NCBI RefSeq assembly: GCF_007994075.1
Contig: NZ_VIWU01000001.1
Location: forward strand, 930,001-994,000
Direction of reading: 5' to 3'
Origin: Pseudonocardia hierapolitana
GTDB lineage: Bacteria > Actinomycetota > Actinomycetes > Mycobacteriales > Pseudonocardiaceae
DNA length: 64,000 nt
The position numbers were made by a program, and so were the translations under genes. This document shows, one piece after another, positions 2,892 to 45,373 of the stretch; within the stretch, counting starts at the first letter, position 1; each line of letters begins with the position of its first letter. A model generated the notes under the pieces. The model saw only the letters and a list, made by a program, of their open reading frames with translations, was not told the origin of the DNA and did not search any database.

Positions 2892-2937
2892 ACAGTCCCG
2901 TAGGGGTGGGGCACCTGGCATCGCCCACGGGGGGTGA
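2892..2937. promoter_or_regulatory. dyad promoter (site 1), Nudix and possibly the 3022 remnant
   Basis: Dyad TCGCCC-ACGGG-GGGTGA at 2921-2937. On the minus strand a hexamer GACTGT follows after 23 bp (2892-2897). On the plus strand no NANNNT hexamer stands at 22-23 bp, which fits the decayed state of the gene on that side. Confidence 0.55.
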
Positions 2938-3021
2938 GAGCACGGGTCTTCCGGGCAGGGTGACGACGCGCGTGGGACGGTTCGGCGTCACGGTGGCCCT
3001 GGCGCCGTGAAAGGAGACGTC

Positions 3022-3126
3022 ATGACGGAGGCCTCCCGTACGAGCGGCAGCTCGCCCGAGGACCACTACTGGGCGGGGTGGGTCGCCTTCGCCGGGATCA
3101 TGCTGCTGAACCGCACGAACGACTGA
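3022..3126 (+). pseudogene. N-terminal remnant of a DUF7144-type membrane protein (34 codons)
   Basis: A strong AAGGAG lies 6-11 bp before an ATG that opens a 34-codon frame ending WVAFAGIMLLNRTND. The block WAGWVAFAGIMLL has the shape of the first membrane segment of DUF7144 proteins; compare LALFAGIVMIIAG in the intact copy at 45408 and LARFAGLAMALLG at 18274. It then stops, and the remaining three membrane segments are absent. I infer a truncated copy of this family that could still be translated as a short peptide. An independent microprotein is the alternative. Confidence 0.55.
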
Positions 3127-3168
3127 CCGGCACTGGACCAGCGTCGTGGACGTCGACACGACCCCGGC

Positions 3169-3213
3169 TCATCTGCGGCGGGTGATGCCGGTCCGATGCC
3201 TGGGGCCGACCGT
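3169..3213 (+). promoter_or_regulatory. dyad promoter (site 2) for the SHOCT gene
   Basis: Dyad TCATCT-GCGGC-GGGTGA at 3169-3185, then exactly 22 bp to GACCGT (3208-3213). The start codon lies 91 bp after the dyad. Confidence 0.6.
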
Positions 3214-3276
3214 TGGCCGATCGGCGGTGGCCCCGTGCCAGTAGCGGTGCCCCAGGCACGGATCGAGGAGATCGAG

Positions 3277-3723
3277 ATGCCTTTGTGGGACGTGATCGTA
3301 TCCATCTTCTGGTTCATGATTCTCTTCACGTGGATCTGGCTGCTGATCTCCATTTTCGGCGACATCTTCCGGGACCACGAGCTGTCCGGCTGGGGCAAGG
3401 CGCTCTGGATCCTGTTCCTGGTCGTTGTGCCTTGGCTGGGTGCCCTCGTCTACCTGATCGCTCGCGGCCGCTCGATGAACGAGCGCGCTCGCGCTCAGGC
3501 CCTGCGCCACGAGCAGGCGTTCGGGCAGTACGTCCGGGAGACCGCCGGGGCGACGAGCACGGCCGACGAGCTCGCCAAGCTCGCTGACCTGCGAGACCGG
3601 GGCACGATCTCGGCCGAGGAGTTCGAGCAGGCCAAGGCCAAGGCCCTGGGCCGTAGCCCGGTGCAGCCTGCTCAGGCGCGCCGCGACCAGCAAGCGGCGA
3701 CCTCCTCCTCCACCATCACGTGA
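3277..3723 (+). CDS. membrane protein with PLDc_N-like segment and C-terminal SHOCT domain
   Basis: 148 residues. Two hydrophobic segments (about residues 5-30 and 42-63, the second ALWILFLVVVPWLGALVYLI) have the look of the PLDc_N/phospholipase-D-nuclease N-terminal pair. A linker follows, then a SHOCT motif: ADELAKLADLRDRGTISAEE with FEQAKAKAL at about residues 95-125. SHOCT helices are thought to mediate oligomerisation; no enzyme activity is implied. The start at 3277 is preceded by GAGGAG (3265-3270). The gene lies in the stress island behind the dyad promoter, and the next gene is 82 bp downstream on the same strand. Confidence 0.85.
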   Translation: MPLWDVIVSIFWFMILFTWIWLLISIFGDIFRDHELSGWGKALWILFLVVVPWLGALVYLIARGRSMNERARAQALRHEQAFGQYVRETAGATSTADELAKLADLRDRGTISAEEFEQAKAKALGRSPVQPAQARRDQQAATSSSTIT

Positions 3724-3805
3724 CCTCCATCATGTGACGGAACCACCGCGACGCCGGCGTGCCGCCCGATGAGCGGCGCGCCGGTGTGAGGGAGGCGGAG
3801 GAGCA

Positions 3806-4347: not shown

Positions 4348-4554
4348 CTACTCGGGAATCGGATGCGCCGCCACCACGGTGATCCCGAGCGCCTGGAGCT
4401 GGACGATGATGCCGTGCAGGTGCGACTCGTCGAGCACCTCACCGTCGATGACCGTCTCCGGTGGAACCTCGGTGATCCGCATGTCGCCGAACGCCGCCCT
4501 GGCCTCGTCCGTCAGCCGACCTTCCACCCGGAACTCGTAGTGCATCGTTGCCAT
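4348..4554 (-). CDS. small conserved protein, 68 aa
   Basis: A compact soluble protein beginning MHYEFRVEGRLTDEARAAF (from residue 4), with a regular alternation of strands and one helix that suggests a single alpha/beta fold. I remember similar short unnamed proteins (HYEFRVEGRLSD..., ...VPPETVLYGPV..DEAHLHGLL) in actinobacterial genomes, but have no function for them. It is convergent with the membrane protein at 3806, and its dyad promoter lies 92-108 bp upstream. Confidence 0.7.
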   Translation of the reverse strand: MATMHYEFRVEGRLTDEARAAFGDMRITEVPPETVIDGEVLDESHLHGIIVQLQALGITVVAAHPIPE

Positions 4555-4617: not shown

Positions 4618-4662
4618 ACCCTGCGCCCACCTGCCGAACGGGACATCGCCCGGCCCGGGTGG
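4618..4662 (-). promoter_or_regulatory. dyad promoter (site 3) for the 68-aa protein
   Basis: Dyad TCGCCC-GGCCC-GGGTGG at 4646-4662. Reading toward 4554, 22 bp separate it from CAGGGT (4618-4623). The intergenic stretch 4555-4863 (309 bp) otherwise holds a short repeat of CATCGCCT beside the start codon, plus site 4. Confidence 0.55.
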
Positions 4663-4782: not shown

Positions 4783-4827
4783 TCATTCGCCGAAGGTGGT
4801 GCTGCCCCGGGGCCGGTGGTCCACGGT
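4783..4827 (+). promoter_or_regulatory. dyad promoter (site 4, degenerate) for the SulP gene
   Basis: A weak dyad TCATTC-GCCGA-AGGTGG at 4783-4799 is followed after exactly 22 bp by CACGGT (4822-4827). The start codon is 64 bp after the dyad, the commonest distance in this window, which supports it despite the mismatches. Confidence 0.45.
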
Positions 4828-4863: not shown

Positions 4864-6582
4864 ATGAGCGTGGGCGCGCCGGACTCGCGCCCCCGGACCT
4901 GGCTGCACCGCGTTCTGCCCGGTGCGGCTGACCTGATGCAGTACCGGCGGTCGTGGCTGCGCCCCGACCTCGTCGCCGGACTTGCGGTCTGGGCGGTGCT
5001 CGTGCCGCAGGGGCTGGCCTACGGCGAGCTCGCCGGCCTGTCGCCCGTGACCGGTCTCTACACCGCGCTCGGTGCGCTGCTGCTGTACCCGCTCGTGGGC
5101 AGCAGCCGCTACGTCCACATCGGACCGGAGTCCGCGGTCGCCATCGTCACCGCCGCCTACATCGGCGGTCTGGTCGCGGACGCGCCCGAGCGGGCGGAAT
5201 CACTCGCCGCGCTGCTCTCCCTCGTCGTGGCGGGGTTCCTGCTGCTGGGCGCGCTCCTCCGGCTGTCCGTCGCGGCTCGGCTGTTGTCCACACCCGTGCT
5301 GGCCGGATACCTGACGGGCTCGGCAGTCGTGATCGGTGCCAGCCAGCTCGGCAAGATCTTCGCCGTCCCGACGCCGGGCGAGCACTGGTGGCAGAAGCTC
5401 GCCGAGGTGGTGGCCGGTCTCCCGGCGATGAACCCGTGGGCGCTGCTCATCGGCGTCACGACCCTCGTCGTCGTGGTCGCACTGCTCCGGTGGGCACCGC
5501 GGGTTCCGGGCATCCTCCTCGCGATCGCGTCGGCCACCGCGGTCGTGGCCATCGCCGGCTGGGAGGGCCGGGTTCCCGTGATCGGCGACGTGCCCTCCGG
5601 TGTTCCCGTCCCCGCGCTTCCTCGGGTCGCCCCCGGCGACGTGGTCGACCTGCTCGGGGCCGGCGCGAGCGTCGCCTTGCTCGTGTTCGCGAGCAGCATG
5701 CTCACGGCCGGCGCTCTCGCCCGGCGCGACCGCGAGCGGGTGTCGGGCCGGCGCGAGTTCCTCGGGCTCGCGGCGTCGTGCGCCGGATCGGGGCTGTTCG
5801 GGGGCTTCCCGGCCAACGCGAGCGAGTCCCGCAGCTTCGTCGTGGCCGACACGGGTGCCCGGTCGCAGATGGCGAACCTCGTCGCCGTCGGGCTCACGGC
5901 CCTGACGCTGGTGGTGCTGACGCCGGTGTTCCGGTTCCTGCCGCAGGCGGCGCTCGGCGCGGTCGTGCTCGCGGCTGCGGCGAGGATGATCGACGTCACC
6001 GCCCTTCGCCGGCTGTGGAGGGTGCGCCGCAGCGACTTCGTGCTGGCGGCGGTCACCGCCGCGGGCGTGCTCGTCGTCGGGGTGCTGCCGGGCATCGGCG
6101 TCGGGGTCGCGGTGTCGCTGCTCGAGGTCCTGCGGCGAGCGGTCATGCCACACACGGCTGTGCTCGGCCGGGTCGCGGGCCGCCCGACGTGGCGCAGCAC
6201 CGACAACCACGAGGGCACCCGGACCGTCCCCGGCCTGCTCGTCTACCGCTTCGACGCACCACTCTTCTTCGCCAACGCCGACGTGCTGCGCGAGCAGGTC
6301 CTCCGGCTCGTCGACGACTCCGACCCACCGGTCCGCGAGGTCGTGCTCGACGCCGAGGGCATCGTCGACATGGACATCACCGGAGCCGAGACGCTCGACG
6401 AGCTCCTCGACGCTCTCGACGATCGCGGAGTGCGCATGGTGCTGGCCCGCGTGCGCAGCTCGCTCCGCTCCACCATGCGCCGGCTCGGGTTGGACGAGCG
6501 GCTCGGACCGGACGCCTTCCACTATCAGATCCGTGACGCCGCGACCGACTTCGTGCGCCGGAACCGGACCACGACGAGCTGA
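4864..6582 (+). CDS. SulP-family inorganic anion transporter with STAS domain
   Basis: 572 residues. The N-terminal transport domain (about residues 20-430) has many membrane helices, including the family signature VLVPQGLAYGELAGLSPVTG with GLYTALGAL. A cytosolic STAS domain follows (about 450-560; LVYRFDAPLFFANAD, then DAEGIVDMDITGAETLDEL). SulP proteins move sulfate, bicarbonate or other anions across the plasma membrane; the substrate cannot be told from sequence. Length and domain order are normal. There is only a weak ribosome binding site at the ATG. Confidence 0.92.
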   Translation: MSVGAPDSRPRTWLHRVLPGAADLMQYRRSWLRPDLVAGLAVWAVLVPQGLAYGELAGLSPVTGLYTALGALLLYPLVGSSRYVHIGPESAVAIVTAAYIGGLVADAPERAESLAALLSLVVAGFLLLGALLRLSVAARLLSTPVLAGYLTGSAVVIGASQLGKIFAVPTPGEHWWQKLAEVVAGLPAMNPWALLIGVTTLVVVVALLRWAPRVPGILLAIASATAVVAIAGWEGRVPVIGDVPSGVPVPALPRVAPGDVVDLLGAGASVALLVFASSMLTAGALARRDRERVSGRREFLGLAASCAGSGLFGGFPANASESRSFVVADTGARSQMANLVAVGLTALTLVVLTPVFRFLPQAALGAVVLAAAARMIDVTALRRLWRVRRSDFVLAAVTAAGVLVVGVLPGIGVGVAVSLLEVLRRAVMPHTAVLGRVAGRPTWRSTDNHEGTRTVPGLLVYRFDAPLFFANADVLREQVLRLVDDSDPPVREVVLDAEGIVDMDITGAETLDELLDALDDRGVRMVLARVRSSLRSTMRRLGLDERLGPDAFHYQIRDAATDFVRRNRTTTS

Positions 6583-6662: not shown

Positions 6663-8000
6663 TCAACCCCCCGTTCCCGGGGTGGTGGACGCCACCGGAC
6701 CCGGACGGCCCAGGAACTCGATCACTCCGAGCACCCCGAGCAACACCGCGGCGATGATCAGGATCGTGATCCCGGTGGGCTGGTCGAGGAAGACGAACAC
6801 CAGCGCGGCGAGTGCGACCGCCCCGATCCGCAGGCCGCGCACATGCGCGTGGGCCCAGGTGCCGACCGCGCTGGTCGAGGACGGGCCGACCCGGATCCGG
6901 TTCAGCAGCCCGGTGGCCCACCGGCGGACGCCGACGGCCGTCGCCGACTGGCCGGCCAGGAAGGCACCCAGTGCCACGACCAAGGCCAGCACGAGCAGCG
7001 ATCGCCCGGCGGTTCGCAGGGACCCCACGACGATGTCGAAGCCCGACGCGGCAGCCGGCGCTCCGGCCGGCGGGACGGCACCGACCAGCAGTCCGCGCGC
7101 CACGAGCAGCCCGGCCGCGAGCACGACCAGCGCCAGCGCGACGCCCAGGCCGGCGGCGACCACCGCCCGCATCCGCACCCGCGCGAGGTACACGCCCACC
7201 GCGAGCAGCAGCAGGGTGATCCACGGCAGCACACTCGCGAGGGAGCCCAGCGTGCTGTAGGCCGTCTGCGCGCGCACCAGCTGGTCGGCCGGAGCGAGCG
7301 CGATCGTCGGGTGCACCTCGGGGACCATGGCGACGACGGTCAGGCCTTCCGCGCTCAGCCGCTGCTTCGCCGCGTCGATGAACGGCGCGAGGTCCAGGTA
7401 CACGGTGCCGCCCTGCACGACGACGGCCTGGCTGTCGCCCGACAGCACCGTCACGGCCTGCTGGTGGGCCACCCGAACGGCCTGGTCCCACGCCGCCGCG
7501 AACCGCGGGCTCGCCACGAGCTCGCCGACCTTCTCCCGCACGAAGCTGGTGGTCGCCGACTCAATCGTCGGGGTCAGGGCATGCAGCCGCTGCACGAGCT
7601 GGGGTGGCAGGCCCTGCGCCGCGAGGGCGTCGATCGCCTCGTTCGCCAGGGCCTGCACGTCGACGTGTTCGAACACGGTTGTCGTGATCCGGTTCGTCAG
7701 GGCCTCCTGCACCGCGGGATCAGCGGCGAGCGGTCCGACGGTCTCGACGAACTGGTCGGTGTCGGAGACCTCGCTGCGCGTCCATACCGCGACGAGTGCG
7801 ACGGGTGCCAGCGCGCAGCCGAGGACGAGCAGCACGGTGGCGATCACCGATCGCCAGCGGATGTGCCACCGCGGGGGGCGCGGCCGGGTGCGCAGCGCCG
7901 AGTTCTCCTCCCGCAACCGCTCGAGCTCGGCGCGTTCGTCGGTCGTCAATGCGGTCCGGACCTCGTCGGGCGGGATCTCGCGGCCCTGCACCTGGGACAT
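6663..8000 (-). CDS. integral membrane protein with N-terminal coiled coil
   Basis: 445 residues. A short hydrophilic N-terminus contains a coiled-coil-like ERAELERLREENSALR, then one membrane helix (VIATVLLVLGCALAPVALVAV). An outside domain of about 180 residues follows, carrying helices that begin VSDTDQFVETVGPLAADPAVQ, and finally four to five more membrane helices. Such proteins are common, unnamed, in actinobacteria. The start at 8000 (MSQVQGRE) is set by GGAGG 9-13 bp upstream; the open frame extends to 8279 but would overlap gadB. It is divergent from gadB with a shared dyad. Confidence 0.75.
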   Translation of the reverse strand: MSQVQGREIPPDEVRTALTTDERAELERLREENSALRTRPRPPRWHIRWRSVIATVLLVLGCALAPVALVAVWTRSEVSDTDQFVETVGPLAADPAVQEALTNRITTTVFEHVDVQALANEAIDALAAQGLPPQLVQRLHALTPTIESATTSFVREKVGELVASPRFAAAWDQAVRVAHQQAVTVLSGDSQAVVVQGGTVYLDLAPFIDAAKQRLSAEGLTVVAMVPEVHPTIALAPADQLVRAQTAYSTLGSLASVLPWITLLLLAVGVYLARVRMRAVVAAGLGVALALVVLAAGLLVARGLLVGAVPPAGAPAAASGFDIVVGSLRTAGRSLLVLALVVALGAFLAGQSATAVGVRRWATGLLNRIRVGPSSTSAVGTWAHAHVRGLRIGAVALAALVFVFLDQPTGITILIIAAVLLGVLGVIEFLGRPGPVASTTPGTGG

Positions 8001-8052: not shown

Positions 8053-8125
8053 ACGGTCGTCCGTCGACGCGATGCGCGCCTCGCCCGCCGCGGATGAGGC
8101 AGGGGCCCTCGACGGCCGGAACCAT
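8053..8125. promoter_or_regulatory. bidirectional dyad promoter (site 5), gadB and membrane protein
   Basis: Dyad TCGCCC-GCCGC-GGATGA at 8081-8097. Hexamers stand at exactly 22 bp on both sides: AACCAT (8120-8125) toward gadB, and GACCGT (8053-8058, minus strand) toward the membrane protein. One symmetric site may therefore drive both genes. Confidence 0.65.
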
Positions 8126-8169: not shown

Positions 8170-9591
8170 ATGGCGAAGCTCGACACGGCTCGCGGAATCG
8201 CCGGCGTGCTATCGGTGAACCCGATGTTCGCGCGATCCGGCGAGATCGCCGCCGTGCCGCGGCACCGGCTCCCGGACACGCCGATGGATCCCGCGACCGC
8301 TTACCAGATCGTCCACGACCACCTCATGCTCGACGGGAACGCGCGGCTCAACCTGGCGACCTTCGTGACCACATGGATGGAACCGGAGGCCGACCGGCTG
8401 ATGGGCGAGTGCCTCGACAAGAACATGATCGACAAGGACGAGTACCCGCAGACCGCCGAGCTCGAAGTGCGCTGCGTGAACATGCTCGCCGCGCTGTGGA
8501 ACGCCCCGGGGAACGGCTCGCAGGCGGCCTCGGCGCTCGGCTGCTCGACCATCGGGTCGAGCGAAGCCGCGATGTTCGCCGGGCTCGCGCTCAAACGGCG
8601 CTGGCAACAGCGGCGCCGCGCCGCCGGTGCGGACACCGCCCGGCCCAACCTCGTGATGGGAATCAACGTCCAGGTCTGCTGGGACAAGTTCTGCAACTAC
8701 TTCGAGGTCGAGCCACGCTTCGCGCCGATGTCGGGCGAGCGGTTCCATCTCGACGCCGCACAGGCCGTCGGGCTGTGCGACGAGAACACCATCGGCGTCG
8801 TCGCGATCCTCGGCTCCACCTTCGACGGCAGCTACGAGCCGGTGGCCGAGATCGCCGCCGCGCTGGACGATCTCCAGTCCGGCACCGGCCTCGACATCCC
8901 GGTGCACGTCGACGGCGCGTCCGGGGGCATGGTTGCCCCGTTCCTCGACCCCGGACTGGAATGGGACTTCCGGCTGCCCCGCGTCGCGTCGATCAACACC
9001 TCGGGACACAAGTACGGGCTGGTCTACCCCGGGGTCGGCTGGGTGGTCTGGCGGGACGCGGAGGCACTGCCGGAGGAACTGATCTTCAAGGTCAACTACC
9101 TGGGCGGAGAGATGCCTACCCTCGCCCTGAACTTCTCCCGGCCCGGTGGGCAGGTGGTGGCGCAGTACTACACGTTCCTGCGTCTGGGGCAGGAGGGATT
9201 CCGGCAGGTCCAGCAGGAGTGCCGCGACGTCGCCATGTACACATCGGCACGGCTCGCGGAGCTGGGCCCGTTCCGGCTGCTCACCCGCGGGGACGAGCTC
9301 CCGGTGTTCGCGTTCACGCTGCACGACGACGTCACGAACTACAGCGTCTTCGACGTCTCGGCCGGGCTGCGGGAGCGCGGTTGGCAGGTGCCTGCCTACA
9401 CGTTCCCGGCCGACCGGGAGGATCTCGCCGCCCTGCGCGTCGTGGTGCGCAACGGCACCAGTCGCGAGATGGCCGACCTCCTGCTGGACGACGTCGCCCA
9501 CCTGCTGCCCCGGTTGCAGCGGCAGTCCGCTCCGGCCAGGGGGTCGGACGCGGCGGGCTTCGACCACGCGTCCGCGCACCGCAAGTCCTGA
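8170..9591 (+). CDS. gadB: glutamate decarboxylase (PLP-dependent)
   Basis: 473 residues, the usual length. It belongs to the group II PLP decarboxylases; the cofactor lysine sits in INTSGHKYGLVYPGVGW, and the phosphate-binding GSSEAAM and the substrate-region HVDGASGGMVAPF are intact. It converts L-glutamate to GABA and CO2, consuming a proton, in acid resistance or the GABA shunt. No glutamate/GABA antiporter gene is next to it. The start at 8170 (MAKLDTARG) has GGGAGG (8158-8163) upstream; an ATG at 8143 is the alternative. Confidence 0.95.
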   Translation: MAKLDTARGIAGVLSVNPMFARSGEIAAVPRHRLPDTPMDPATAYQIVHDHLMLDGNARLNLATFVTTWMEPEADRLMGECLDKNMIDKDEYPQTAELEVRCVNMLAALWNAPGNGSQAASALGCSTIGSSEAAMFAGLALKRRWQQRRRAAGADTARPNLVMGINVQVCWDKFCNYFEVEPRFAPMSGERFHLDAAQAVGLCDENTIGVVAILGSTFDGSYEPVAEIAAALDDLQSGTGLDIPVHVDGASGGMVAPFLDPGLEWDFRLPRVASINTSGHKYGLVYPGVGWVVWRDAEALPEELIFKVNYLGGEMPTLALNFSRPGGQVVAQYYTFLRLGQEGFRQVQQECRDVAMYTSARLAELGPFRLLTRGDELPVFAFTLHDDVTNYSVFDVSAGLRERGWQVPAYTFPADREDLAALRVVVRNGTSREMADLLLDDVAHLLPRLQRQSAPARGSDAAGFDHASAHRKS

Positions 9592-10606: not shown

Positions 10607-11062
10607 TCAGGCGCGGGCGGGCTTGGCCTCCTCGACCGCGTCGAGTGCGTCGAGCAGGGCCGCGACGGGGATGCGCCCACTCGCCACCAGTTCGGCTCCG
10701 GCCCGGCGAAGCGCCGACACGAACGGGATCGCCCAGAGGTTCTCGTACACCACGATCGCGGCCGCGGTGCCCGGCTCGATCGCGGCGGCGGCCTCGTCCA
10801 GGTCGTCATGAGCGACGAGACCCGACGTCGCGCCCTCCAGGACCCGGAGGTCGAGCTCGCCGTCGCCGTCGAGGTCGGCGATCTCCAGGCCGGTCACCGA
10901 TCCGTCGGCCTCCTTGCGGATGAAGGCCAGGTCGAGGATGCGCACGGTCCCCCGGTCGACCAGATCGAGGATTCGTTGCAGCACGTCCCCCGGCACCCGC
11001 GTATCCGGGAACTCCACGACGAGGTAGTCGACCGGTCCCATCATGTCCAGTTCGTCGCCCAT
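10607..11062 (-). CDS. DUF6325 family protein
   Basis: 151 residues. It begins MMGPVDYLVVEFPDTRVPGD and contains RILDLAFIRKEADGSVTGLE, both characteristic of DUF6325, and the pattern VVYENLWAIPFVSALRRAGAE resembles the repeat seen in related DUF1269-type proteins. Function is unknown; members often neighbour SHOCT and GAP genes, as here. It is the first gene of the unit, and its dyad promoter is 64 bp upstream. Confidence 0.85.
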   Translation of the reverse strand: MGDELDMMGPVDYLVVEFPDTRVPGDVLQRILDLVDRGTVRILDLAFIRKEADGSVTGLEIADLDGDGELDLRVLEGATSGLVAHDDLDEAAAAIEPGTAAAIVVYENLWAIPFVSALRRAGAELVASGRIPVAALLDALDAVEEAKPARA

Positions 11063-11098: not shown

Positions 11099-11143
11099 AC
11101 GCTCGCCCGGGCGTTCCTCCGTGACCTCACCTCCGACGGATGA
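11099..11143 (-). promoter_or_regulatory. dyad promoter (site 6) for DUF6325-SHOCT-GAP
   Basis: Dyad TCACCT-CCGAC-GGATGA at 11127-11143, 22 bp, then GAGCGT (11099-11104) toward the gene. The start codon is 64 bp after the dyad. Confidence 0.6.
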
Positions 11144-11153: not shown

Positions 11154-12356
11154 TCAGGTCGGCGCGGCTTTCAGGTCCTGCTTCTGCTGCTCGCGTTCGC
11201 TGCGCCGCTCGCGTCGCGACTTCTTCGCAGGCGCATCCGGGTCCGGTTCCTTCGGGGTGTCCCTCAGCAGCGCATCGGCCCACTTGGCCTGCGGATCGAT
11301 GTCCACGAGCAGCGCCTTGGCCAGCAGCGTCAGCGGGATGGCGAGGATCGCCCCGAGCGGGCCGAGCAACCACGCCCAGAACACCAGCACCACGAACGTC
11401 ACGGTGACCGACAGCCCCACCGCGTCCCCGATGAACCGGGGCTGGATGATCGACTGGACCACGAAGTTGATCCCGCAGTACACCACGATGACGATCACCA
11501 TCAGCTGCGGTCCGCCGGTCAGGAGCGCGAGCAGCGCGGGTGGCACGACGCCGATGATGAACCCGACGTTCGGGATGTAGTTGGTGATGAACGACAGCAG
11601 GCCCCAGGTGACCGCGAGCGGGATGCCCAGCAGCGCCAGCGCGACCGAGTCGAGCACCGCCACGATCAACCCGAAGACGGTCGTCACCAGCAGGTACTGC
11701 CGGGTGCCCCAGGCGAAGTGTCCGAGCGCGTCGGCGATTCTCGGCCGGTCCGCCGCGATCGACGCCAGCCGGTCCCCGGTGCCCCCGGCCTCGACGCTGA
11801 GGAAGAGCAGCAGCGCCAGCAGGAACACGAGGTTGGACGCCAGCCCGGCCACGCTGCTCAGCAGCGACCCGAGCACGCCTGCGAAGCTGCCGAGGCTCAG
11901 GGAGCTCCTCGCCTGCGCGAGCTGCTCCGGTCCCACTCCCAGCGCGGCCAGCTGCGCGGTCGCGGACGTCACCAGGCCGTCGGCCGTCGACGCGTACTTC
12001 GGCAGCTCGGTCGCCAGCCGGGCAACGGAGAAGACGATGCCGAGGGCCAGCCCCAACATGATCGCGTAGACGAGGAGGATCACCACGAGTGTCGTGGCCC
12101 ATCCCGGCCACCCGTGGCGCCGTAGCCAGCTCTGCGCCGGCGCCACGGCGATCACGATGATGAGTGCCATGAACGCCGGGCCGATCAGCCACGCGACTGC
12201 CTGCACCCCTGCGAGGACGATCACCGTAGCGGCCGCACCGACGAGGATGACCATCGCCCGCGGCAGGCCACCCTGCCGTGCTGGCGGCCGTGAGCGGACA
12301 CCGTCCGAGGATGGACGGGCGGCCGGGATGGCGGGAGTGCCTGCCGGTGTGGTCAC
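11154..12356 (-). CDS. AI-2E family transporter (first copy)
   Basis: About 400 residues with eight membrane helices. Hallmarks of the AI-2E/PerM family are the SFITNYIPNVGFIIGVVPPA stretch, the SIIQPRFIGDAVGLSVTVTF stretch and the C-terminal GPLGAILAIPLTLLAKALLV. The tail is charged (KKSRRERRSEREQQKQDL). The family includes the E. coli TqsA exporter, but most members have unknown substrates. GTG 12356 is preferred: no ribosome binding site precedes it, yet a promoter hexamer TACCGT ends exactly 6 nt before it, which would make the mRNA leaderless. A GTG at 12395 lies inside the dyad and is less likely. A second copy is at 23462. Confidence 0.88.
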   Translation of the reverse strand: MTTPAGTPAIPAARPSSDGVRSRPPARQGGLPRAMVILVGAAATVIVLAGVQAVAWLIGPAFMALIIVIAVAPAQSWLRRHGWPGWATTLVVILLVYAIMLGLALGIVFSVARLATELPKYASTADGLVTSATAQLAALGVGPEQLAQARSSLSLGSFAGVLGSLLSSVAGLASNLVFLLALLLFLSVEAGGTGDRLASIAADRPRIADALGHFAWGTRQYLLVTTVFGLIVAVLDSVALALLGIPLAVTWGLLSFITNYIPNVGFIIGVVPPALLALLTGGPQLMVIVIVVYCGINFVVQSIIQPRFIGDAVGLSVTVTFVVLVFWAWLLGPLGAILAIPLTLLAKALLVDIDPQAKWADALLRDTPKEPDPDAPAKKSRRERRSEREQQKQDLKAAPT

Positions 12357-12362: not shown

Positions 12363-12408
12363 ACGGTAGGGCCGGCGCCGGACCCCCGGCGTCACCCGCG
12401 GCGGGCGA
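12363..12408 (-). promoter_or_regulatory. dyad promoter (site 7), leaderless type, for the first AI-2E gene
   Basis: Dyad TCACCC-GCGGC-GGGCGA at 12392-12408, 23 bp, then TACCGT (12363-12368), and 6 nt later the GTG at 12356. The dyad centre would be about 43-44 bp upstream of a transcription start placed on the GTG. Confidence 0.65.
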
Positions 12409-14931: not shown

Positions 14932-14976
14932 ACCCTGCCCGGACGGAACGGCCGAGGCATCACCCGCGACGGACGA
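14932..14976 (-). promoter_or_regulatory. dyad promoter (site 8) for the GH15 gene
   Basis: Dyad TCACCC-GCGAC-GGACGA at 14960-14976, 22 bp, then CAGGGT (14932-14937). It starts 93 bp upstream of the ATG. The 305-bp gap 14867-15171 contains only this site and site 9. Confidence 0.65.
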
Positions 14977-15082: not shown

Positions 15083-15127
15083 TCACCTCAGCGAGGTGAT
15101 GCGTCGCCGTCGGCGCCGCCGGACCGT
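15083..15127 (+). promoter_or_regulatory. dyad promoter (site 9) reading through a GMC remnant into zwf
   Basis: Perfectly symmetric dyad TCACCT-CAGCG-AGGTGA at 15083-15099, 22 bp, then GACCGT (15122-15127). The first start codon downstream is the GTG of the GMC remnant (15172), and zwf lies 15 bp after the remnant's stop. Confidence 0.65.
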
Positions 15128-18167: not shown

Positions 18168-18240
18168 ACGGTGCGCGGCCTGGCGAGGCGGGGCATCGTC
18201 CGGGCCGGGTGAGTGGTCGGAGCCATCTCCCGCGGGTGAT
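18168..18240. promoter_or_regulatory. bidirectional dyad promoter (site 10), ClC and DUF7144-pit
   Basis: Dyad TCGTCC-GGGCC-GGGTGA at 18196-18212, exactly 61 bp from both divergent start codons. Toward ClC, CACCGT (18168-18173) stands at 22 bp. Toward DUF7144 the matching position holds GGTGAT (18235-18240), a weaker hexamer. A second, poorer dyad overlaps 18223-18239. Confidence 0.6.
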
Positions 18241-20244: not shown

Positions 20245-20290
20245 TCACCCCTTCAGGGTGATGCACCCCTTCGAATTGCCGTGCGAAAAT
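20245..20290 (+). promoter_or_regulatory. dyad promoter (site 11) for the 45-aa basic protein
   Basis: Dyad TCACCC-CTTCA-GGGTGA at 20245-20261 with both half-sites perfect. GAAAAT follows after 23 bp (20285-20290). The start codon is 63 bp after the dyad. Confidence 0.65.
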
Positions 20291-23397: not shown

Positions 23398-23442
23398 ATC
23401 GTGGCCGTCCTCGAGCCTCGTGCCTTCACCTGCCTGGGGTGA
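23398..23442 (-). promoter_or_regulatory. dyad promoter (site 12), leaderless type
   Basis: Dyad TCACCT-GCCTG-GGGTGA at 23426-23442, 22 bp, then CACGAT (23398-23403), then 6 nt, then ATG 23391. No Shine-Dalgarno sequence is present in the gap. Confidence 0.65.
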
Positions 23443-26603: not shown

Positions 26604-26649
26604 ACCCTCGCGTCTCGTGGCACCGGTCCGCGTCACTCATTGCGGGTGA
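26604..26649 (-). promoter_or_regulatory. dyad promoter (site 13) for alkylsulfatase and AI-2E
   Basis: Dyad TCACTC-ATTGC-GGGTGA at 26633-26649 (one mismatch), 23 bp, then GAGGGT (26604-26609). It lies 69 bp from ATG 26563. Confidence 0.55.
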
Positions 26650-26775: not shown

Positions 26776-26821
26776 TCATCCCTGACGGATGAGGCGCCTC
26801 GCCGCAGTCGTCGGGCAGGTT
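26776..26821 (+). promoter_or_regulatory. dyad promoter (site 14) for the K+ channel
   Basis: Perfect dyad TCATCC-CTGAC-GGATGA at 26776-26792. CAGGTT follows after 23 bp (26816-26821). The sequence from the dyad to about 26830 nearly repeats the promoter of the lipoprotein gene at 32735 (site 20), including an identical stretch CGTCGGGCAGGTTCGGTGCC. Confidence 0.68.
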
Positions 26822-27467: not shown

Positions 27468-27484
27468 TCACCCGTCACGGGTGA
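27468..27484. promoter_or_regulatory. orphan dyad site (site 15) between convergent genes
   Basis: Perfect dyad TCACCC-GTCAC-GGGTGA, identical to site 25 at 45329 along with several flanking bases. It starts 4 bp after the K+ channel stop. No NANNNT hexamer stands at 22-23 bp on either side and no gene start follows, so it is not a promoter of the usual layout. It could also act as a weak stem-loop. Confidence 0.45.
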
Positions 27485-28474: not shown

Positions 28475-28519
28475 ACTCTGCTGACCGCGACCCGCCGCGC
28501 CATCACCCCGCGGGGGCGA
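28475..28519 (-). promoter_or_regulatory. dyad promoter (site 16) for DUF1269-amphi-Trp
   Basis: Dyad TCACCC-CGCGG-GGGCGA at 28503-28519, 22 bp, then CAGAGT (28475-28480). The start codon is 63 bp from the dyad. Confidence 0.65.
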
Positions 28520-30610: not shown

Positions 30611-30655
30611 ATGGTCGGCGGAAGCAGTGCGCTCGGCCCCATCCGTGCGGGATGA
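30611..30655 (-). promoter_or_regulatory. dyad promoter (site 17) for the phosphodiesterase
   Basis: Dyad CCATCC-GTGCG-GGATGA at 30639-30655 (one mismatch), 22 bp, then GACCAT (30611-30616). The start codon is 63 bp from the dyad. Confidence 0.6.
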
Positions 30656-32147: not shown

Positions 32148-32192
32148 AACCTAGAGCGACGCGGTTCGCTGCGCCTCGTCCGATTCGGGTGA
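32148..32192 (-). promoter_or_regulatory. dyad promoter (site 19), leaderless type, for 42-aa protein and DUF389
   Basis: Dyad TCGTCC-GATTC-GGGTGA at 32176-32192, 22 bp, then TAGGTT (32148-32153), then 7 nt, then GTG 32140. Confidence 0.62.
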
Positions 32193-32735: not shown

Positions 32736-32776
32736 GATCAGCGGTCCGCCTCCGATGTCGGTTGGTGTGGGCACCG

Positions 32777-32821
32777 AACCTGCCCGACGGATCCGACGGG
32801 CGCCTCATACGTCAGGGATGA
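32777..32821 (-). promoter_or_regulatory. dyad promoter (site 20) for the lipoprotein
   Basis: Dyad TCATAC-GTCAG-GGATGA at 32805-32821, 22 bp, then CAGGTT (32777-32782). The sequence from the dyad through the hexamer is nearly the same as site 14 at the K+ channel. Confidence 0.65.
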
Positions 32822-32938: not shown

Positions 32939-32983
32939 CCACCTGCAACGGATGAGAACGCTCGCCTGACTCGAGGCGACAGT
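32939..32983 (+). promoter_or_regulatory. dyad promoter (site 21) upstream of the DyP operon
   Basis: Dyad CCACCT-GCAAC-GGATGA at 32939-32955 with two mismatches in the left half. GACAGT follows at exactly 22 bp (32978-32983). The first gene starts at 33129, so the leader would be about 140 nt. The gap 32736-33128 (393 bp) holds only sites 20 and 21. Confidence 0.45.
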
Positions 32984-33701: not shown

Positions 33702-33737
33702 TTGGGAGCCAATCAGCAGGAGCCATGGAGGAGCGGC

Positions 33738-34871: not shown

Positions 34872-34884
34872 GAATGCGACGTCC

Positions 34885-36237: not shown

Positions 36238-36270
36238 ACGGGCATCGAAATCCCAGGAAAGGAGGGCGAC

Positions 36271-37137
36271 GTGACAACGAGCCCGACGAGCACCGACCGC
36301 TGGAAGGCACTCGACTTCGGCCCGCCGCCATCGGGGCTGGCGGAGCCCGAACTGCCGGTGCTCGTCGATTACGGCTCCGGCGGACGCGTGGCACTCATCA
36401 CCCTGAACCGGCCGCACACCGACAACGCGATCACGACGGAGATGGGGGCGCGGCTGACGGAGGTCCTGGAGACGATCGCGGTCCGTCCCGCCGTGCGCGT
36501 CGCCATCATCACCGGCGCCGGCGACCGAGCCTTCTCGGTCGGCAGCGACCTGCGCCAGCGCAAGGACATGACCAAGGAGCAATGGCTGCGGCAGCGCCAG
36601 GACTTCGACCGCACGCTCTACACCCTGCGCCAGCTGCGCAAGCCGATCTTCGCCGCCGTCAACGGCATCGCCTACGGCGGCGGCTGCGAGATCGCCCAGA
36701 GCACCGACTTCATCATCGCGTCCGACAACGCGACCTTCGGCCAGCCCGAAGCGATGATCGGCCTGGCCGCCGGTGGCGGCTCGCCGGCCCTACTGCCCCG
36801 TTTGCTCCCGCCGGGCAAAGCCCTGCAGATGCTGATGACCGGCGACCCGATCACCGCGCAGGAGGCCCACCGGCTGGGCATGGTCAACGAGCTCCACCCC
36901 CAGGACGAGCTGCTGGAGGTTGCGCACCGCATCGCGGACAAGATCGCCAGCAACTCTCCCACGGCGGTCCAGGCGGTCAAGCGAGCCGTCCGGATGGGCC
37001 AGGGGCAGCCGATCGAACAGGCCATCGCGATCATGATGGAGGCCCACTGGCGCTCAGCCGTGCACCCCGACCGCGTCGAAGGCATCGGCGCCTTCAACGA
37101 CGACCGGGAGCCCACCTTTCAGGATCCCGACTACTGA
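36271..37137 (+). CDS. enoyl-CoA hydratase/isomerase family protein
   Basis: 288 residues. Crotonase features are ALITLNRPHTDNAITTEM, the oxyanion-hole region ITGAGDRAFSVGSDLRQRKD, VNGIAYGGGCEIAQSTDFII and the acidic segment FGQPEAMIGLAAGGGSP. An N-terminal extension of about 35 residues precedes the domain. Substrate unknown. AAAGGAGG precedes GTG 36271. Its place in an operon with a peroxidase and a molybdoenzyme is unusual. Confidence 0.87.
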   Translation: MTTSPTSTDRWKALDFGPPPSGLAEPELPVLVDYGSGGRVALITLNRPHTDNAITTEMGARLTEVLETIAVRPAVRVAIITGAGDRAFSVGSDLRQRKDMTKEQWLRQRQDFDRTLYTLRQLRKPIFAAVNGIAYGGGCEIAQSTDFIIASDNATFGQPEAMIGLAAGGGSPALLPRLLPPGKALQMLMTGDPITAQEAHRLGMVNELHPQDELLEVAHRIADKIASNSPTAVQAVKRAVRMGQGQPIEQAIAIMMEAHWRSAVHPDRVEGIGAFNDDREPTFQDPDY

Positions 37138-37182
37138 GGCGCGACCCGCGCGTCCGCGGCCATCCACGAGGAGGCGGAGAAC

Positions 37183-38262
37183 ATGACCTTGGCAGATGAC
37201 CTGGCGCAGGCGCGTTCGGCGCTCACGATGATCCACGACGAGCCCTTCAACGCAGAAGCCCCGCCGGAGGCCCTGGAAGGCGACACCACGCCGACGGAAC
37301 TCCACTACGTCCGCAGCAACTTCGCGGTACCGGCCCACGATGGATCGCTCGAGGTCGGTGGCGCGATCGAGCACCCGAGGACCCTGACGCTCGACGACCT
37401 GCGCGCCATGCCCTCGGTCGAGCGGGCCGTCACGATGGAATGCGCCGGGAACGGGCGACTCGCGATGCGACCGCTGCCGGCCGGCGAACCATGGGGTGAC
37501 TACGCCGTCTCCACGGCTCGCTGGACCGGTGCCCTCCTGCACCAGGTGCTGGAGGAGGCCAAGCCGGCGGCGGAGGGCGTCGAGGTTCGCTTCGCAGGAG
37601 CCGACCACGGCTCGTACCTGCTCCATCCGGTCCTCGCCGTCACCAAGCGGTCCGACTTGACCTTCGTGCGGTCCCTGACTCTCGCCCACGCAACCGACCC
37701 GCAAGCCGAGATCCTGATCGCCTACGAGATGAACGGCGAGCCGCTCAACCCCGACCACGGCGCGCCCTTCCGGCTCATCGTGCCCCACTGGTACGGCGTC
37801 GCCTCCGTGAAATGGCTGAAGCACATCGACGTCCTGACCGAGCCGTACGCCGGGGAGTTCGAAACCGGGCACTACATGTACCAGTGGGCCGATCGTCCGC
37901 CTGAGCGCGTCACCCTCATGCGTGTGCGCGCGCGGATCACCGATCCCGCTCGGGGCGCGACCATCCCCGCTGGGACCTACACCGTGCGCGGAAAGGCCTG
38001 GTCGGGTACCGGACCGATCACGAACGTCGACGTCAGCCTCACCGGCGAAGGCGAATGGCACCCGGCGCAGGTCGAACCCCCGAAGGGCCCGTACCAGTGG
38101 CAGGATTGGTCGTTCGCGTGGAAGGCGACCGAGCGCTGCCGCCACAGCCTCCGCGCCCGTGCGGTCGACGCAGCCGGCAACGTGCAGCCCGAGGTCCCAC
38201 CCTGGAACCGCCTCGGCTACGGCAACAACGCCGTCGAGGTTTCCTACGTCGACGTGCGCTGA
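37183..38262 (+). CDS. sulfite-oxidase-like molybdopterin oxidoreductase
   Basis: 359 residues. It begins with ALTMIHDEPFNAEAPPEAL, typical of the SUOX family. The molybdenum-ligating cysteine lies in VERAVTMECAGNGRLAM, followed by RWTGALLHQVLEEAKPAAEG and a dimerisation domain (about residues 240-355; GKAWSGTGPITNVDVSLTGE). There is no heme domain and no signal peptide. Substrate may be sulfite or another oxyanion. Last gene of the DyP operon. Confidence 0.88.
   Translation: MTLADDLAQARSALTMIHDEPFNAEAPPEALEGDTTPTELHYVRSNFAVPAHDGSLEVGGAIEHPRTLTLDDLRAMPSVERAVTMECAGNGRLAMRPLPAGEPWGDYAVSTARWTGALLHQVLEEAKPAAEGVEVRFAGADHGSYLLHPVLAVTKRSDLTFVRSLTLAHATDPQAEILIAYEMNGEPLNPDHGAPFRLIVPHWYGVASVKWLKHIDVLTEPYAGEFETGHYMYQWADRPPERVTLMRVRARITDPARGATIPAGTYTVRGKAWSGTGPITNVDVSLTGEGEWHPAQVEPPKGPYQWQDWSFAWKATERCRHSLRARAVDAAGNVQPEVPPWNRLGYGNNAVEVSYVDVR

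Positions 38263-40435: not shown

Positions 40436-40439
<4 letters not shown>
38301..40439 (-). CDS. glgX: glycogen debranching enzyme GlgX
   Basis: 712 residues. An N-terminal CBM48-like domain (GGTNFAVASGAEAVRLCLFD) precedes a GH13 barrel. The nucleophile is in EMRVDGFRFDLAPTLARE, the general acid in AKLIAEPWDVGQGDSYD, and the GlgX-type loop in TAHDGFTLADLVSYDSKHNE. It removes alpha-1,6 branches from glycogen or maltodextrins. GTG 40439 overlaps the stop of the upstream GH63-like gene (GTGA), so translation is coupled. Confidence 0.93.
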
Positions 40440-43141
<2,702 letters not shown>

Positions 43142-43176: not shown

Positions 43177-43221
43177 AGTCTCGGACCTCGACATCTCCGG
43201 GAACTCATCCGCTGAGGGCGA
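43177..43221 (-). promoter_or_regulatory. dyad promoter (site 22) for GH63-like-glgX
   Basis: Dyad TCATCC-GCTGA-GGGCGA at 43205-43221, 22 bp, then GAGACT (43177-43182). The start codon is 63 bp from the dyad. Confidence 0.65.
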
Positions 43222-43318: not shown

Positions 43319-43364
43319 CCGCCCGACGTGGGTGAGGCGGCCGGGCCACGGCCCGATGCACGCT
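43319..43364 (+). promoter_or_regulatory. dyad promoter (site 23, degenerate) for the YccF gene
   Basis: Dyad CCGCCC-GACGT-GGGTGA at 43319-43335 with two left-half mismatches, 23 bp, then CACGCT (43359-43364). The start codon is 58 bp from the dyad. Confidence 0.45.
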
Positions 43365-44317
43365 CAGAGGGACCTCGTCGATGGAGGACCGCGATGCGAA
43401 CCGTGCTCAACGTCATCTGGCTGCTCCTCTGCGGGATCTGGCTCGCCATCGGCTACGTCCTCGCCGGAGTGGTCTGCTGCCTCCTCATCGTCACGATCCC
43501 GTTCGGGCTGGCGTCGTTCCGGATCGCGGACTTCGCGCTGTGGCCCTTCGGCCGGCAACTCGTGCGCCGCGAGGACGCCGGAGCGCCGTCCACCATCGGC
43601 AACGTCATCTGGATCATCTTCGCCGGCTGGTGGCTCGCGCTCGCGCACCTCACCACGGCCGTCGCGCTGGCGGTCACGATCATCGGGATCCCGCTCGCCT
43701 GGGCCAGCCTGAAGCTGATCCCGGTCTCGCTCGTCCCGCTCGGGCGGATCATCGTGCCCACGGACGACGCGCAGGCCACCCGGTATCCCGTGGTGCGCTG
43801 ACCCCGCAGGGGTCTCGCCCGGTGCGGATGCGAACATCGGCTTTCGGTCGTAGACCACGATCGAGCCGACGACGAGGTCCTGTACCGAACGGCGCGTCGG
43901 GCTGATCGCACACCACAGCAGCCCGACGGGGAACGCGACGCAGGCCAGTGCGCGCACCGACGCGCGGGCCCAGCCCAGTCGGCCGCCCCGTCGCGCGAGC
44001 ACCCGGATCCCGAGCAGGCCTGCGCCGTAGGTGCACCCGGTCGTGGCCCACGCCACGGTGAGGTAGGCGGTCGCGATCAGTCCTCCAACGACAACGGTGA
44101 CCTCCGTCGTCGGTCGGGGCCACGTGAAGGCGAGGGGCGACCACGCGAACCGGACGCCCGCGATCGAGAGGTACACCAACACGGTCAGCAGCACGACCAC
44201 GACGAGGTCCACGGCGGCGGCGAGAAGCCGGGTAACCACGCCCGCCCGACACGGCCCGGGGGTGGCGCTCATCTCCCGCCCTCGCTGTGCCGACGATCCG
44301 CTTGCAAGATCACTCAT
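43364..44317 (-). CDS. RDD family membrane protein with an abnormally long antisense C-terminus
   Basis: The RDD part (about residues 20-165) has three to four membrane segments: GVVTRLLAAAVDLVVVVLLT, EVTVVVGGLIATAYLTVAWA and ACVAFPVGLLWCAI, ending SVQDLVVGSIVVYDRKPMF, where RDD proteins normally finish. The frame has no stop there and stays open for about 150 more Arg/Asp/Glu-rich residues exactly antisense to the YccF gene, so the true end is doubtful (frameshift or real extension). ATG 44317 overlaps the upstream stop (ATGA); ATG 44272 with GGGCGGGAG is the alternative. Confidence 0.65.
   Translation of the reverse strand: MSDLASGSSAQRGREMSATPGPCRAGVVTRLLAAAVDLVVVVLLTVLVYLSIAGVRFAWSPLAFTWPRPTTEVTVVVGGLIATAYLTVAWATTGCTYGAGLLGIRVLARRGGRLGWARASVRALACVAFPVGLLWCAISPTRRSVQDLVVGSIVVYDRKPMFASAPGETPAGSAHHGIPGGLRVVRGHDDPPERDERDRDQLQAGPGERDPDDRDRQRDGRGEVREREPPAGEDDPDDVADGGRRSGVLAAHELPAEGPQREVRDPERRQPERDRDDEEAADHSGEDVADGEPDPAEEQPDDVEHGSHRGPPSTRSL
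43394..43801 (+). CDS. YccF domain membrane protein
   Basis: 135 residues. Two copies of the YccF domain are visible: LNVIWLLLCGIWLAIGYVLA with IPFGLASFRIADFALWPFGR, and IGNVIWIIFAGWWLALAHLT with IPLAWASLKLIPVSLVPLGR. This duplication is the normal YccF layout. Function is unknown. GATGGAGGACC precedes the ATG. The gene lies entirely antisense to the C-terminal extension of the RDD frame. Confidence 0.88.
   Translation: MRTVLNVIWLLLCGIWLAIGYVLAGVVCCLLIVTIPFGLASFRIADFALWPFGRQLVRREDAGAPSTIGNVIWIIFAGWWLALAHLTTAVALAVTIIGIPLAWASLKLIPVSLVPLGRIIVPTDDAQATRYPVVR
43800..43816. terminator. stem-loop after the YccF gene
   Basis: GACCCC-GCA-GGGGTC (43801-43815) forms a 6-bp stem overlapping the stop codon. 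There is no U-tract. It could end YccF transcripts and, being symmetric, the RDD transcripts from the other side. Confidence 0.4.
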
Positions 44318-45099
44318 TGCAGCGCAGGCCGCTCTGGATCCGGCCGTCGCAACACCCGGCCGACGAAGCGCGCGACCGCATCGTCGGCGTGCATCCCCTC
44401 CGCCCGGAGGCCGTGCACCGTCTCGGAGGACAACGCCCTGCTGGACTGGCGGATGATCTCGGGCAGATCGATCGCGTCGATGACCTCGCGCGCGATCCCG
44501 GCGAGGTCGAGGCGGGCGACCACGGCGTCGAGGTCCACCCGCCCGACAACCGCATCCGCGTCGAGACGCTCCGCGATCGCGTCGAGATCGATACGGGATG
44601 TGACGAGGTCCAGATCGACCTTGGCGACGATCGCGTCGACGTCGATGCGGTCGAGGATGGCGTCGAGGTTCACCCGCGCCACGGCGGCGTCCAGATCAGC
44701 GCGGCTCACCGCAGCGTCGAGGTCGGCGCGGGCGACGATGGCGTCCACATCGATTCCGCGGGCGAGCGCGTCGAGATCGACGTTGCGGCGGACGAGCTCG
44801 GTCAGGTCGACGACATCCACCACGGCCAGCACGAGCCGGCGGACGGTCGCCCGCATCGCGTGCTCCAGCTCGGCCCGGACCTGTCCCCCGCGATCGGCGA
44901 GGCCTGCCAACACCCGCTCCCCCACTCCGATGCGGGACATCCGCAGGCCGAGCTGGAGCACCGTGCCTGCAGCGGCGAGGACGGGCCCGGCGAGCGTCCC
45001 CACCAGGTCAGCGAGGGCGGCCCCGGCGCCCAGTGCCGTGTCCGCTCTACCACCGGGCAACACGTCGGGTCGGTCGCCCCGCCGCTCGTCATCGCTCAC
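44314..45099 (-). CDS. protein with tandem (V/I)D(L/V)DAIV repeats, RDD-partner
   Basis: 261 residues. After a helical N-terminal part (about 1-105) there is a run of about ten 11-residue repeats of the type NVDLDALARGI, DVDAIVARA, DLDAAVSRA, NLDAILDRI, ending with EVIDAIDLPEIIRQSSRALS. These suggest a regular solenoid. I recall the same repeats in the same chain as an RDD domain in actinobacteria; here they are in separate overlapping genes. GTG 45099 follows a promoter hexamer by 6 nt (leaderless layout), with a weak GGAG also present. Confidence 0.72.
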   Translation of the reverse strand: MSDDERRGDRPDVLPGGRADTALGAGAALADLVGTLAGPVLAAAGTVLQLGLRMSRIGVGERVLAGLADRGGQVRAELEHAMRATVRRLVLAVVDVVDLTELVRRNVDLDALARGIDVDAIVARADLDAAVSRADLDAAVARVNLDAILDRIDVDAIVAKVDLDLVTSRIDLDAIAERLDADAVVGRVDLDAVVARLDLAGIAREVIDAIDLPEIIRQSSRALSSETVHGLRAEGMHADDAVARFVGRVLRRPDPERPALQ

Positions 45100-45105
45100 G
45101 CGTCC

Positions 45106-45150
45106 ACGCTCCGTCGGACTCCACGCCTCGGCCTCACCCGGAGCAGGCGA
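45106..45150 (-). promoter_or_regulatory. dyad promoter (site 24), leaderless type, for the repeat protein-RDD pair
   Basis: Dyad TCACCC-GGAGC-AGGCGA at 45134-45150, 22 bp, then GAGCGT (45106-45111), then 6 nt, then GTG 45099. The gap 45100-45407 (308 bp) holds this site and site 25. Confidence 0.6.
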
Positions 45151-45328
45151 AATCCGCAGTACGGCAGGCGATGACGACCCCCGGCCCGGCCGCCGGCCGG
45201 CAAGATCGCGGCCGAGATCAGCCAGCTGCGCGAGGCGCACGATCGCACCGCTGTCCCCCGCGCCCCGGCGCCGCGACGGAGTCGGCTCGGGCCCGGGCCG
45301 AGCGCGGGCGGAGGCTCCATCGCCCGGC

Positions 45329-45373
45329 TCACCCGTCACGGGTGAGGGACCGGCAGCATCCGAGAGCCATGAT
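45329..45373 (+). promoter_or_regulatory. dyad promoter (site 25) for DUF7144 copy 3
   Basis: Perfect dyad TCACCC-GTCAC-GGGTGA at 45329-45345, 22 bp, then CATGAT (45368-45373). The start codon is 62 bp from the dyad. This is the last dyad promoter seen in the window. Confidence 0.68.

What the first reader, a model, noticed from the sequence alone, without database searches (positions are those of the whole stretch)
2892..45373. One position-locked promoter class drives more than 20 units in a 43-kb stress island
Seen: a 17-bp dyad TCRYCC-N5-GGRYGA occurs upstream of most transcription units from the Nudix gene to DUF7144 copy 3. Twelve copies fit this consensus exactly; the others have one to three mismatches. 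In nearly all promoter copies an NANNNT hexamer (GACCGT, CAGGGT, GAGCGT, CAGGTT and the like) stands 22 or 23 bp after the dyad. In DNA this GC-rich such a hexamer should be present at one of two registers only a few percent of the time. Inference: the dyad replaces a -35 box and binds one activator centred near -43 (class II position). I do not recognise the motif as a known actinobacterial box, so this may be an undescribed global regulon.
Basis: partly seen in the sequence, partly recalled or inferred. Interest (0 to 1): 0.94.

Follow-up and report, generated by a model that had tools for sequence, protein, structure and literature searches.

The report
Gene island run by MalT-like activator
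A 43-kb stretch of a soil actinobacterium's chromosome (likely Pseudonocardia) carries about 25 promoter-like sites built on one paired DNA box standing a fixed distance before the -10 element, and they are likely switched on together by a MalT-like activator encoded at its edge, a scheme already demonstrated in Actinoplanes and here found beside such regulator genes in many genera.

Summary
TCRYCC-N5-GGRYGA occurs 12 times exactly in the window (0.42 expected) and 39 times in the genome (14 for the reversed control). With a matrix trained on other genomes the island has 28 sites and 24 of 33 gene-facing sides carry NANNNT 22/23 bp after the dyad; 380 kb of background gives 0 of 3. Pooled over related genomes, 220 of 336 gene-facing sides have the hexamer in that register; other offsets give 0-3%.

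The claim of an undescribed box fails: PMC7567727 (2020) reports 5'-TCATCC-5nt-GGATGA-3', 34.4 +/- 1.0 nt before mapped starts in Actinoplanes, where deleting a MalT-type LuxR regulator lowers 42 of 51 genes. Here a MalT-type regulator gene opens the window (1-2210, starting off-window). Eighty loci fetched by its homologues alone hold 175 dyads with spacer 5, against 7-15 at spacers 3, 4, 6 and 7.

Not found described in my searches: the spread beyond Micromonosporaceae, a conserved ~66-aa protein (predicted ferredoxin-like fold) as commonest target, and a dyad-preceded paralogue with a decayed DNA-binding helix. Binding, activation and signal are untested here.

The parts
1..2210 (+). LAL-B, MalT-type LuxR regulator; 884-aa gene at G000:C1:929556-932210, start outside the window; proposed activator
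   Evidence: (GerE over cut-off, TPR_MalT and AAA_22 below cut-off)
2921..2937 (-). dyad, GACTGT at +23, toward Nudix gene 2319-2843
   Evidence: Pfam
3169..3185 (+). dyad (1 mismatch), GACCGT at +22, toward SHOCT/PLDc_N gene 3247-3723
   Evidence: Pfam
4348..4545 (-). 65-aa small protein, member of the commonest target family; predicted ferredoxin-like fold
4646..4662 (-). dyad (1 mismatch), CAGGGT at +22, toward the small protein gene
4783..4799 (+). weak dyad (9.9 bits), CACGGT at +22, toward SulP gene 4864-6582
   Evidence: Pfam
8081..8097 (.). dyad in register on both sides: AACCAT at +22 toward glutamate decarboxylase-type gene 8170-9591 (+), GACCGT at +22 toward 6663-8000 (-)
   Evidence: Pfam
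11127..11143 (-). dyad (1 mismatch), GAGCGT at +22, toward DUF6325 gene 10607-11062
   Evidence: Pfam
12392..12408 (-). dyad, TACCGT at +23, toward AI-2E-type gene 11154-12254
   Evidence: Pfam
14960..14976 (-). dyad, CAGGGT at +22, toward GH15/trehalase-like gene 13037-14866
   Evidence: Pfam
15083..15099 (+). degenerate dyad (16.1 bits), GACCGT at +22, toward G6PD gene 15388-16689
   Evidence: Pfam
18196..18212 (-). dyad, CACCGT at +22, toward ClC channel gene 16800-18134
   Evidence: Pfam
18223..18239 (+). degenerate dyad (14.1 bits), CAGAAT at +22, toward 18406-18762 (groups with DUF7144 proteins)
20245..20261 (+). dyad, GAAAAT at +23, toward diacylglycerol-kinase-type gene 20543-21823 (290 bp to the called start)
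   Evidence: Pfam
23426..23442 (-). dyad (1 mismatch), CACGAT at +22, toward membrane gene 22807-23364
   Evidence: Pfam
26633..26649 (-). dyad (1 mismatch), GAGGGT at +23, toward alkyl-sulfatase-type gene 24692-26578
   Evidence: Pfam
26776..26792 (+). dyad, CAGGTT at +23, toward ion-channel gene 26867-27463
   Evidence: Pfam
27468..27484 (.). perfect dyad without an in-register hexamer on either side
28503..28519 (-). dyad, CAGAGT at +22, toward DUF1269 gene 27945-28439
   Evidence: Pfam
30639..30655 (-). dyad (1 mismatch), GACCAT at +22, toward phosphodiesterase-type gene 28560-30575
   Evidence: Pfam
32176..32192 (-). dyad, TAGGTT at +22, toward DUF389 gene 31092-32009
   Evidence: Pfam
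32805..32821 (-). dyad (1 mismatch), CAGGTT at +22, toward 32235-32516 (start uncertain)
32939..32955 (+). degenerate dyad (14.8 bits), GACAGT at +22, toward the run of genes 33129-38262
   Evidence: Pfam
43205..43221 (-). dyad, GAGACT at +22, toward glycoside-hydrolase gene 40436-43141
   Evidence: Pfam
43319..43335 (+). weak dyad (11.2 bits), CACGCT at +23, toward 43394-43801
45134..45150 (-). dyad (1 mismatch), GAGCGT at +22, toward 44314-44961
45329..45345 (+). dyad, CATGAT at +22, toward DUF7144-group gene 45528-45866; last promoter site of the island

Best explanation
The island is a MalT-type regulon in which each promoter carries two inverted MalT-like half-sites ending 22/23 bp before the -10 hexamer, and the ATP-binding LuxR regulator encoded at window 1-2210 is predicted to bind them near -42.5 and bring in RNA polymerase in place of a -35 contact. 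Shown here: the dyad, its register, the regulator gene, and the linkage of dyads to such regulator genes in other genomes. Shown by others in Actinoplanes: mapped starts and activation. Inferred: binding and activation in this organism, and the signal. The gene families (glutamate decarboxylase, arginine deiminase in a satellite cluster, ClC, DUF308, ion channel, GH15, G6PD) suggest acid, ion or envelope stress; that is a guess. A neighbouring paralogue (LAL-A) with a decayed recognition helix has a dyad in register before it and might damp the response; the ~66-aa protein may be a partner of the regulator. Both are untested.
For: Register 220 of 336 gene-facing sides against 0-3% elsewhere. 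Same box and same spacing with a proven MalT-type activator in Actinoplanes (PMC7567727). Half-site cGGRTGAgg resembles the E. coli MalT box GGGGA(T/G)GAGG as quoted in that paper. The regulator has GerE, and MalT-like NTPase and TPR matches; closest solved chain is MalT 8bob; 24% identity to E. coli MalT end to end, with a similar HTH. Eighty loci fetched by regulator homology alone: 175 dyads at spacer 5 against 7, 11, 11, 15 at 3, 4, 6, 7 and 0 reversed; 63 of 80 loci have one. Strict-dyad density rises with regulator closeness, 0.28, 0.64, 1.73 per Mb over 246 genomes.
Against: No binding or expression data for this organism. The regulator is below NCBIfam's MalT cut-off, 247 of 537 bits. 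Three such regulators lie in this genome and I cannot say which one binds. LAL-B has no in-register dyad of its own. 17 of 80 loci have no dyad. Genomes without a close regulator still have about ten times more strict dyads than the control, 0.28 against 0.03 per Mb, so more distant regulators may read the box or my cut-off is too strict.
Confidence: 0.85

Rival explanations
1. Another DNA-binding protein, encoded elsewhere, reads the dyad; the MalT-like gene is only a neighbour or member of the regulon.
For: LAL genes are sometimes dyad targets themselves, 13 in the target list; genomes without a close LAL hit have some excess of dyads.
Against: Loci chosen only by LAL homology are rich in dyads; half-site resembles the MalT box; deletion and overexpression in Actinoplanes.
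Confidence: 0.1
2. The dyad is an operator for a repressor, with the fixed spacing reflecting overlap with the promoter rather than activation.
For: A palindrome over the -35 region could also block polymerase; sequence alone does not decide.
Against: Hexamers are weak (TANNNT at +22 on 4% of sides), as expected for activated promoters; the Actinoplanes homologue activates.
Confidence: 0.04
3. Chance in GC-rich DNA.
For: At one mismatch the genome-wide excess is small, 586 against 490.
Against: Shuffles, reversed patterns, other spacers and other registers all give far fewer.
Confidence: 0.01

Closest known systems
[quoted passage not shown] SE50/110 (PMC7567727)
   Same: Box TCATCC-N5-GGATGA; distance to the start (34.4 +/- 1.0 nt there, 22/23 + 6 + about 6 here); MalT-like LuxR genes in or at the region, two there and two here; arginine deiminase, glutamine amidotransferase and peptidase-type genes near dyads at family level.
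   Different: Different genus; more regions in this genome than the window's (dyad clusters also at 1.37-1.39 and 8.50 Mb); third regulator copy; paralogue with decayed helix; small-protein family not discussed in the parts I read; gene-by-gene orthology not tested.
E. coli MalT and its mal promoters
   Same: NTPase, TPR and GerE HTH layout; half-site like GGGGA(T/G)GAGG; position near -35.
   Different: 24% identity and below the NCBIfam MalT cut-off; a single inverted pair; no maltose genes seen among the annotated island genes.
OsdR/DevR regulon of Streptomyces (PMC5069765, passages)
   Same: Actinobacterial stress-gene cluster with many palindromic sites around the regulator.
   Different: Consensus AGGGCCGATCGGCCCT is another palindrome, read by a two-component regulator.

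Membership tests
MalT regulon of the Actinoplanes MRLGR kind | TCATCC-N5-GGATGA dyad before many units of one region | tested here: met
   12 exact copies of the wider form TCRYCC-N5-GGRYGA, 28 matrix sites in the island; the literal TCATCC/GGATGA pair occurs once, at 26776
MalT regulon of the Actinoplanes MRLGR kind | Dyad 34.4 +/- 1.0 nt before the transcription start, overlapping -35 | tested here: inconclusive
   -10-like hexamer in the matching register; starts not mapped
MalT regulon of the Actinoplanes MRLGR kind | MalT-like LuxR regulator gene in the region | tested here: met
   LAL-B at window 1-2210, LAL-A upstream
MalT regulon of the Actinoplanes MRLGR kind | Regulator deletion lowers and overexpression raises the genes; induction on maltose | not testable with these tools
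   needs experiments
MalT regulon of the Actinoplanes MRLGR kind | Orthology of the regulator and genes to ACSP50_3900-3950 | not tested
   Actinoplanes SE50/110 sequence not fetched by name; an unnamed family of the class shows the same core set with dyads
MalT (NCBIfam equivalog PRK04841) | Score over the curated cut-off of 537 bits | tested here: not met
   247.4 bits
LAL (large ATP-binding LuxR) regulators | N-terminal NTPase, long TPR-like middle, C-terminal GerE HTH, about 900 aa | tested here: met
   884 aa; GerE 42.8 bits over cut-off; AAA_22 22.8 and TPR_MalT 33.7 below their cut-offs; Walker-type GYGKT in sequence
OsdR/DevR regulon | AGGGCCGATCGGCCCT-type box | tested here: not met
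   the dyad does not fit that consensus (passages); the window was not scanned for OsdR boxes

The most novel reading that the evidence does not exclude
A widespread actinobacterial regulon of acid, ion and envelope defence is run by MalT-type regulators that have left sugar sensing, take their signal through a dedicated 66-aa ferredoxin-fold partner, and are damped in Pseudonocardia by a regulon-induced twin whose DNA-reading helix has decayed.
Probability: 0.25. Interest if true: 0.7.

Novelty: new member of a known kind. Interest (0 to 1): 0.5.

Why it matters
It gives a candidate regulator, a testable box and a register to a large set of genes of unknown function (DUF7144, DUF1269, DUF6325, DUF308, SHOCT proteins) in many actinobacteria, and shows that the MalT-type regulon reported in Actinoplanes is not confined to one family. 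The conserved small protein and the decayed regulator twin are concrete handles on how MalT-like regulators may be controlled outside enterobacteria.

Tried and rejected

Literature searches for other accounts of the box or regulon: (listings); only PMC7567727 was found to describe it; DUF7144 gave no paper. They cover open-licence PMC papers only. PMC7567727: parts 1-5 of 6 read. PMC5069765: passages only. The other listed papers were not opened.

Limits: gene starts come from my own GC-frame caller; sites in related genomes are not independent; part of the genomes were fetched at known dyads, which inflates target fractions there (named-only fractions are in the report); only three candidates per genome were scored. 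Dropped before the register count: sites within 70 bp of a locus end and repeated contexts (38 of 39 own-genome exact sites were classified).
Full report
What was claimed.

The exact dyad occurs 12 times in the window, 0.42 expected from shuffles, all intergenic, and 39 times in the 8.86-Mb genome against 14 for the reversed pattern. Of 38 exact own-genome sites classified, 29 are intergenic. Of the 16 gene-facing sides of the 12 window copies, 12 have the hexamer at +22/+23, where chance in the same intergenic DNA is 4.7%. With a matrix trained on other genomes, the island (2.2-45.9 kb) has 28 sites of 12 bits or more, all intergenic, with 24 of 33 facing sides in register; the other 18 kb of the window has 0 intergenic and 1 genic; 380 kb of scattered stretches from the same genome has 6 intergenic and 7 genic, and 0 of 3 facing sides in register. 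Against: at one mismatch the whole-genome excess is only 586 to 490.

The register is general. Pooling the own genome, four others of the genus and 80 named loci, 336 gene-facing sides show the hexamer at +22 in 47% and at +23 in 18%, and at every other offset from 10 to 39 in 0-3%. By set: window 12 of 16, rest of own genome 7 of 15, other genomes of the genus 58 of 86, named loci 143 of 219. Sides facing away from genes show 10% and 5%, and sites called genic 15% and 13%, so some of those are probably miscalled promoters. Of 106 sites between divergent genes 103 have at least one in-register hexamer and 20 have both, so one palindrome may serve two promoters. The half-site reads cGGRTGAgg.

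The claim of novelty fails. PMC7567727 (parts 1-5 of 6 read) describes in Actinoplanes sp. SE50/110 a 51-gene region with 5'-TCATCC-5nt-GGATGA-3' before 17 mapped starts, 34.4 +/- 1.0 nt from the dyad's 3' end, overlapping -35. Deleting the MalT-like LuxR regulator ACSP50_3915 lowers 42 of 51 genes; overexpression raises 39. No maltose-metabolism gene is affected, and the authors leave the region's function open. They found the box in four other Micromonosporaceae. The spacing here (22/23 bp, a 6-bp hexamer, about 6 bp to the start) fits theirs.

The regulator was off-window. The open frame at 24-2210 is the C-terminal part of an 884-aa gene at G000:C1:929556-932210: GerE HTH over the Pfam cut-off, TPR_MalT and AAA_22 matches below theirs, nearest solved chain MalT 8bob, 24% identity to E. 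coli MalT end to end, similar HTH. It is below NCBIfam's MalT cut-off. A second copy, LAL-A, lies just upstream at 925353-927962; its recognition helix has lost the T-V-K-S-H stretch, and a dyad with GACAGT at +23 stands before it. Four such decayed copies are seen in loci of the genus (L020/L061, L058, L096, L118); two (L020, L118) are in the in-register target list, L058's begins at a locus end, and L096's has no counted site. A third own copy, at 6301155-6303761, lies near the dyad at 6300590.

Linkage to the regulator. Eighty named loci were fetched by regulator homology alone (Pseudonocardia, Geodermatophilus, Blastococcus, Amycolatopsis, Prauserella, Actinomycetospora, Lentzea, Rhodococcus, Prescottella, Nitriliruptorales and others). 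In 1.55 Mb they hold 112 strict dyads against 0 reversed, and for the looser form 175 with spacer 5 against 0, 7, 11, 11, 15, 5 at spacers 2, 3, 4, 6, 7, 8; 63 of 80 loci have a loose and 56 a strict dyad. Over 246 genomes of the class the strict dyad's density rises with the closeness of the regulator: 0.28 per Mb (187 genomes without a hit at 1e-40), 0.64 (42), 1.73 (17 at 1e-90 or better), control 0.02-0.03; Mann-Whitney p = 5e-11 for hit against none. That test ignores relatedness, and only three candidates per genome were scored. In a second, unnamed family, three genomes show the regulator with the small protein, DUF6325, DUF7144 and DUF1269, and in part SulP, SHOCT and GH15, with dyads; 18 of 27 facing sides are in register after removing one doubly fetched site.

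The targets. Clustered across loci, genes that follow an in-register dyad are most often a ~66-aa protein (56 of 70 copies; named loci only 46 of 58), a DUF7144 group (48 of 63; 36 of 47), AI-2E/SfLAP-type membrane proteins (35 of 66; 25 of 51), DUF1269 (35 of 44; 31 of 37), MFS-type proteins (19 of 34; 15 of 26), DUF308 (14 of 17; 8 of 11), DAGK (13 of 18; 8 of 13), sulfatase (13 of 17; 12 of 15), DUF6325 (12 of 14; 6 of 8), SHOCT/PLDc_N (11 of 17; 5 of 11), Nudix (10 of 12; 7 of 9), GH15 (10 of 23; 8 of 20) and arginine deiminase (4 of 8; 4 of 5). The small protein lies within 1 kb of a regulator gene in 46 of 70 cases and occurs in 44 of the 80 named loci. It has no Pfam or NCBIfam family in the members tried and is modelled at pLDDT 93.6 as beta-alpha-beta-beta-alpha-beta; fold searches give only the common ferredoxin-like class. 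I propose it as a partner or feedback part of the regulator; that is a guess from neighbourhood.

Function. A glutamate-decarboxylase-type gene with its own dyad, arginine deiminase downstream of DUF308 in a satellite cluster with a one-mismatch dyad in register (L035:12643), ClC, AI-2E-type and ion-channel genes, G6PD and GH15 point to acid, ion or envelope stress. The Actinoplanes data point to growth phase and maltose instead. Both are open.

Organism. The closest named relatives of the regulator are Pseudonocardia (75% in P. alaniniphila); the genome itself is unnamed.

Verdict. A real, very well supported promoter class; a new member of a known kind, with a wider range and two companions that my searches did not find described.

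Noticed in passing
window 208-296: ARAGORN calls a tRNA-Arg inside the coding frame of the MalT-like regulator; likely a false call.
   Followed up: no
window 26776-26830 (+) and 32765-32821 (-): Two promoters are near-identical from the dyad through the hexamer (shared GTCGGGCAGGTTCGGTGCCCAC), so one may be a copy of the other.
   Followed up: no
window 27468-27484: A perfect dyad, identical to that at 45329, has no in-register hexamer and stands just after the ion-channel gene.
   Followed up: partly
G051:C1 1.870-1.875 Mb and 6.48-6.51 Mb: The same dyad sequences recur in two or three blocks of one genome, as if parts of the regulon had been duplicated.
   Followed up: no
L061:3996-4220, L054:15201-15464, L058:1218-1499: A second family of short proteins (about 75-93 aa) beside the regulators, with no NCBIfam match for the one tried.
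   Followed up: no
187 genomes of the class without a close regulator hit: They still carry about ten times more strict dyads than the control, so more distant regulators may read the same box.
   Followed up: no
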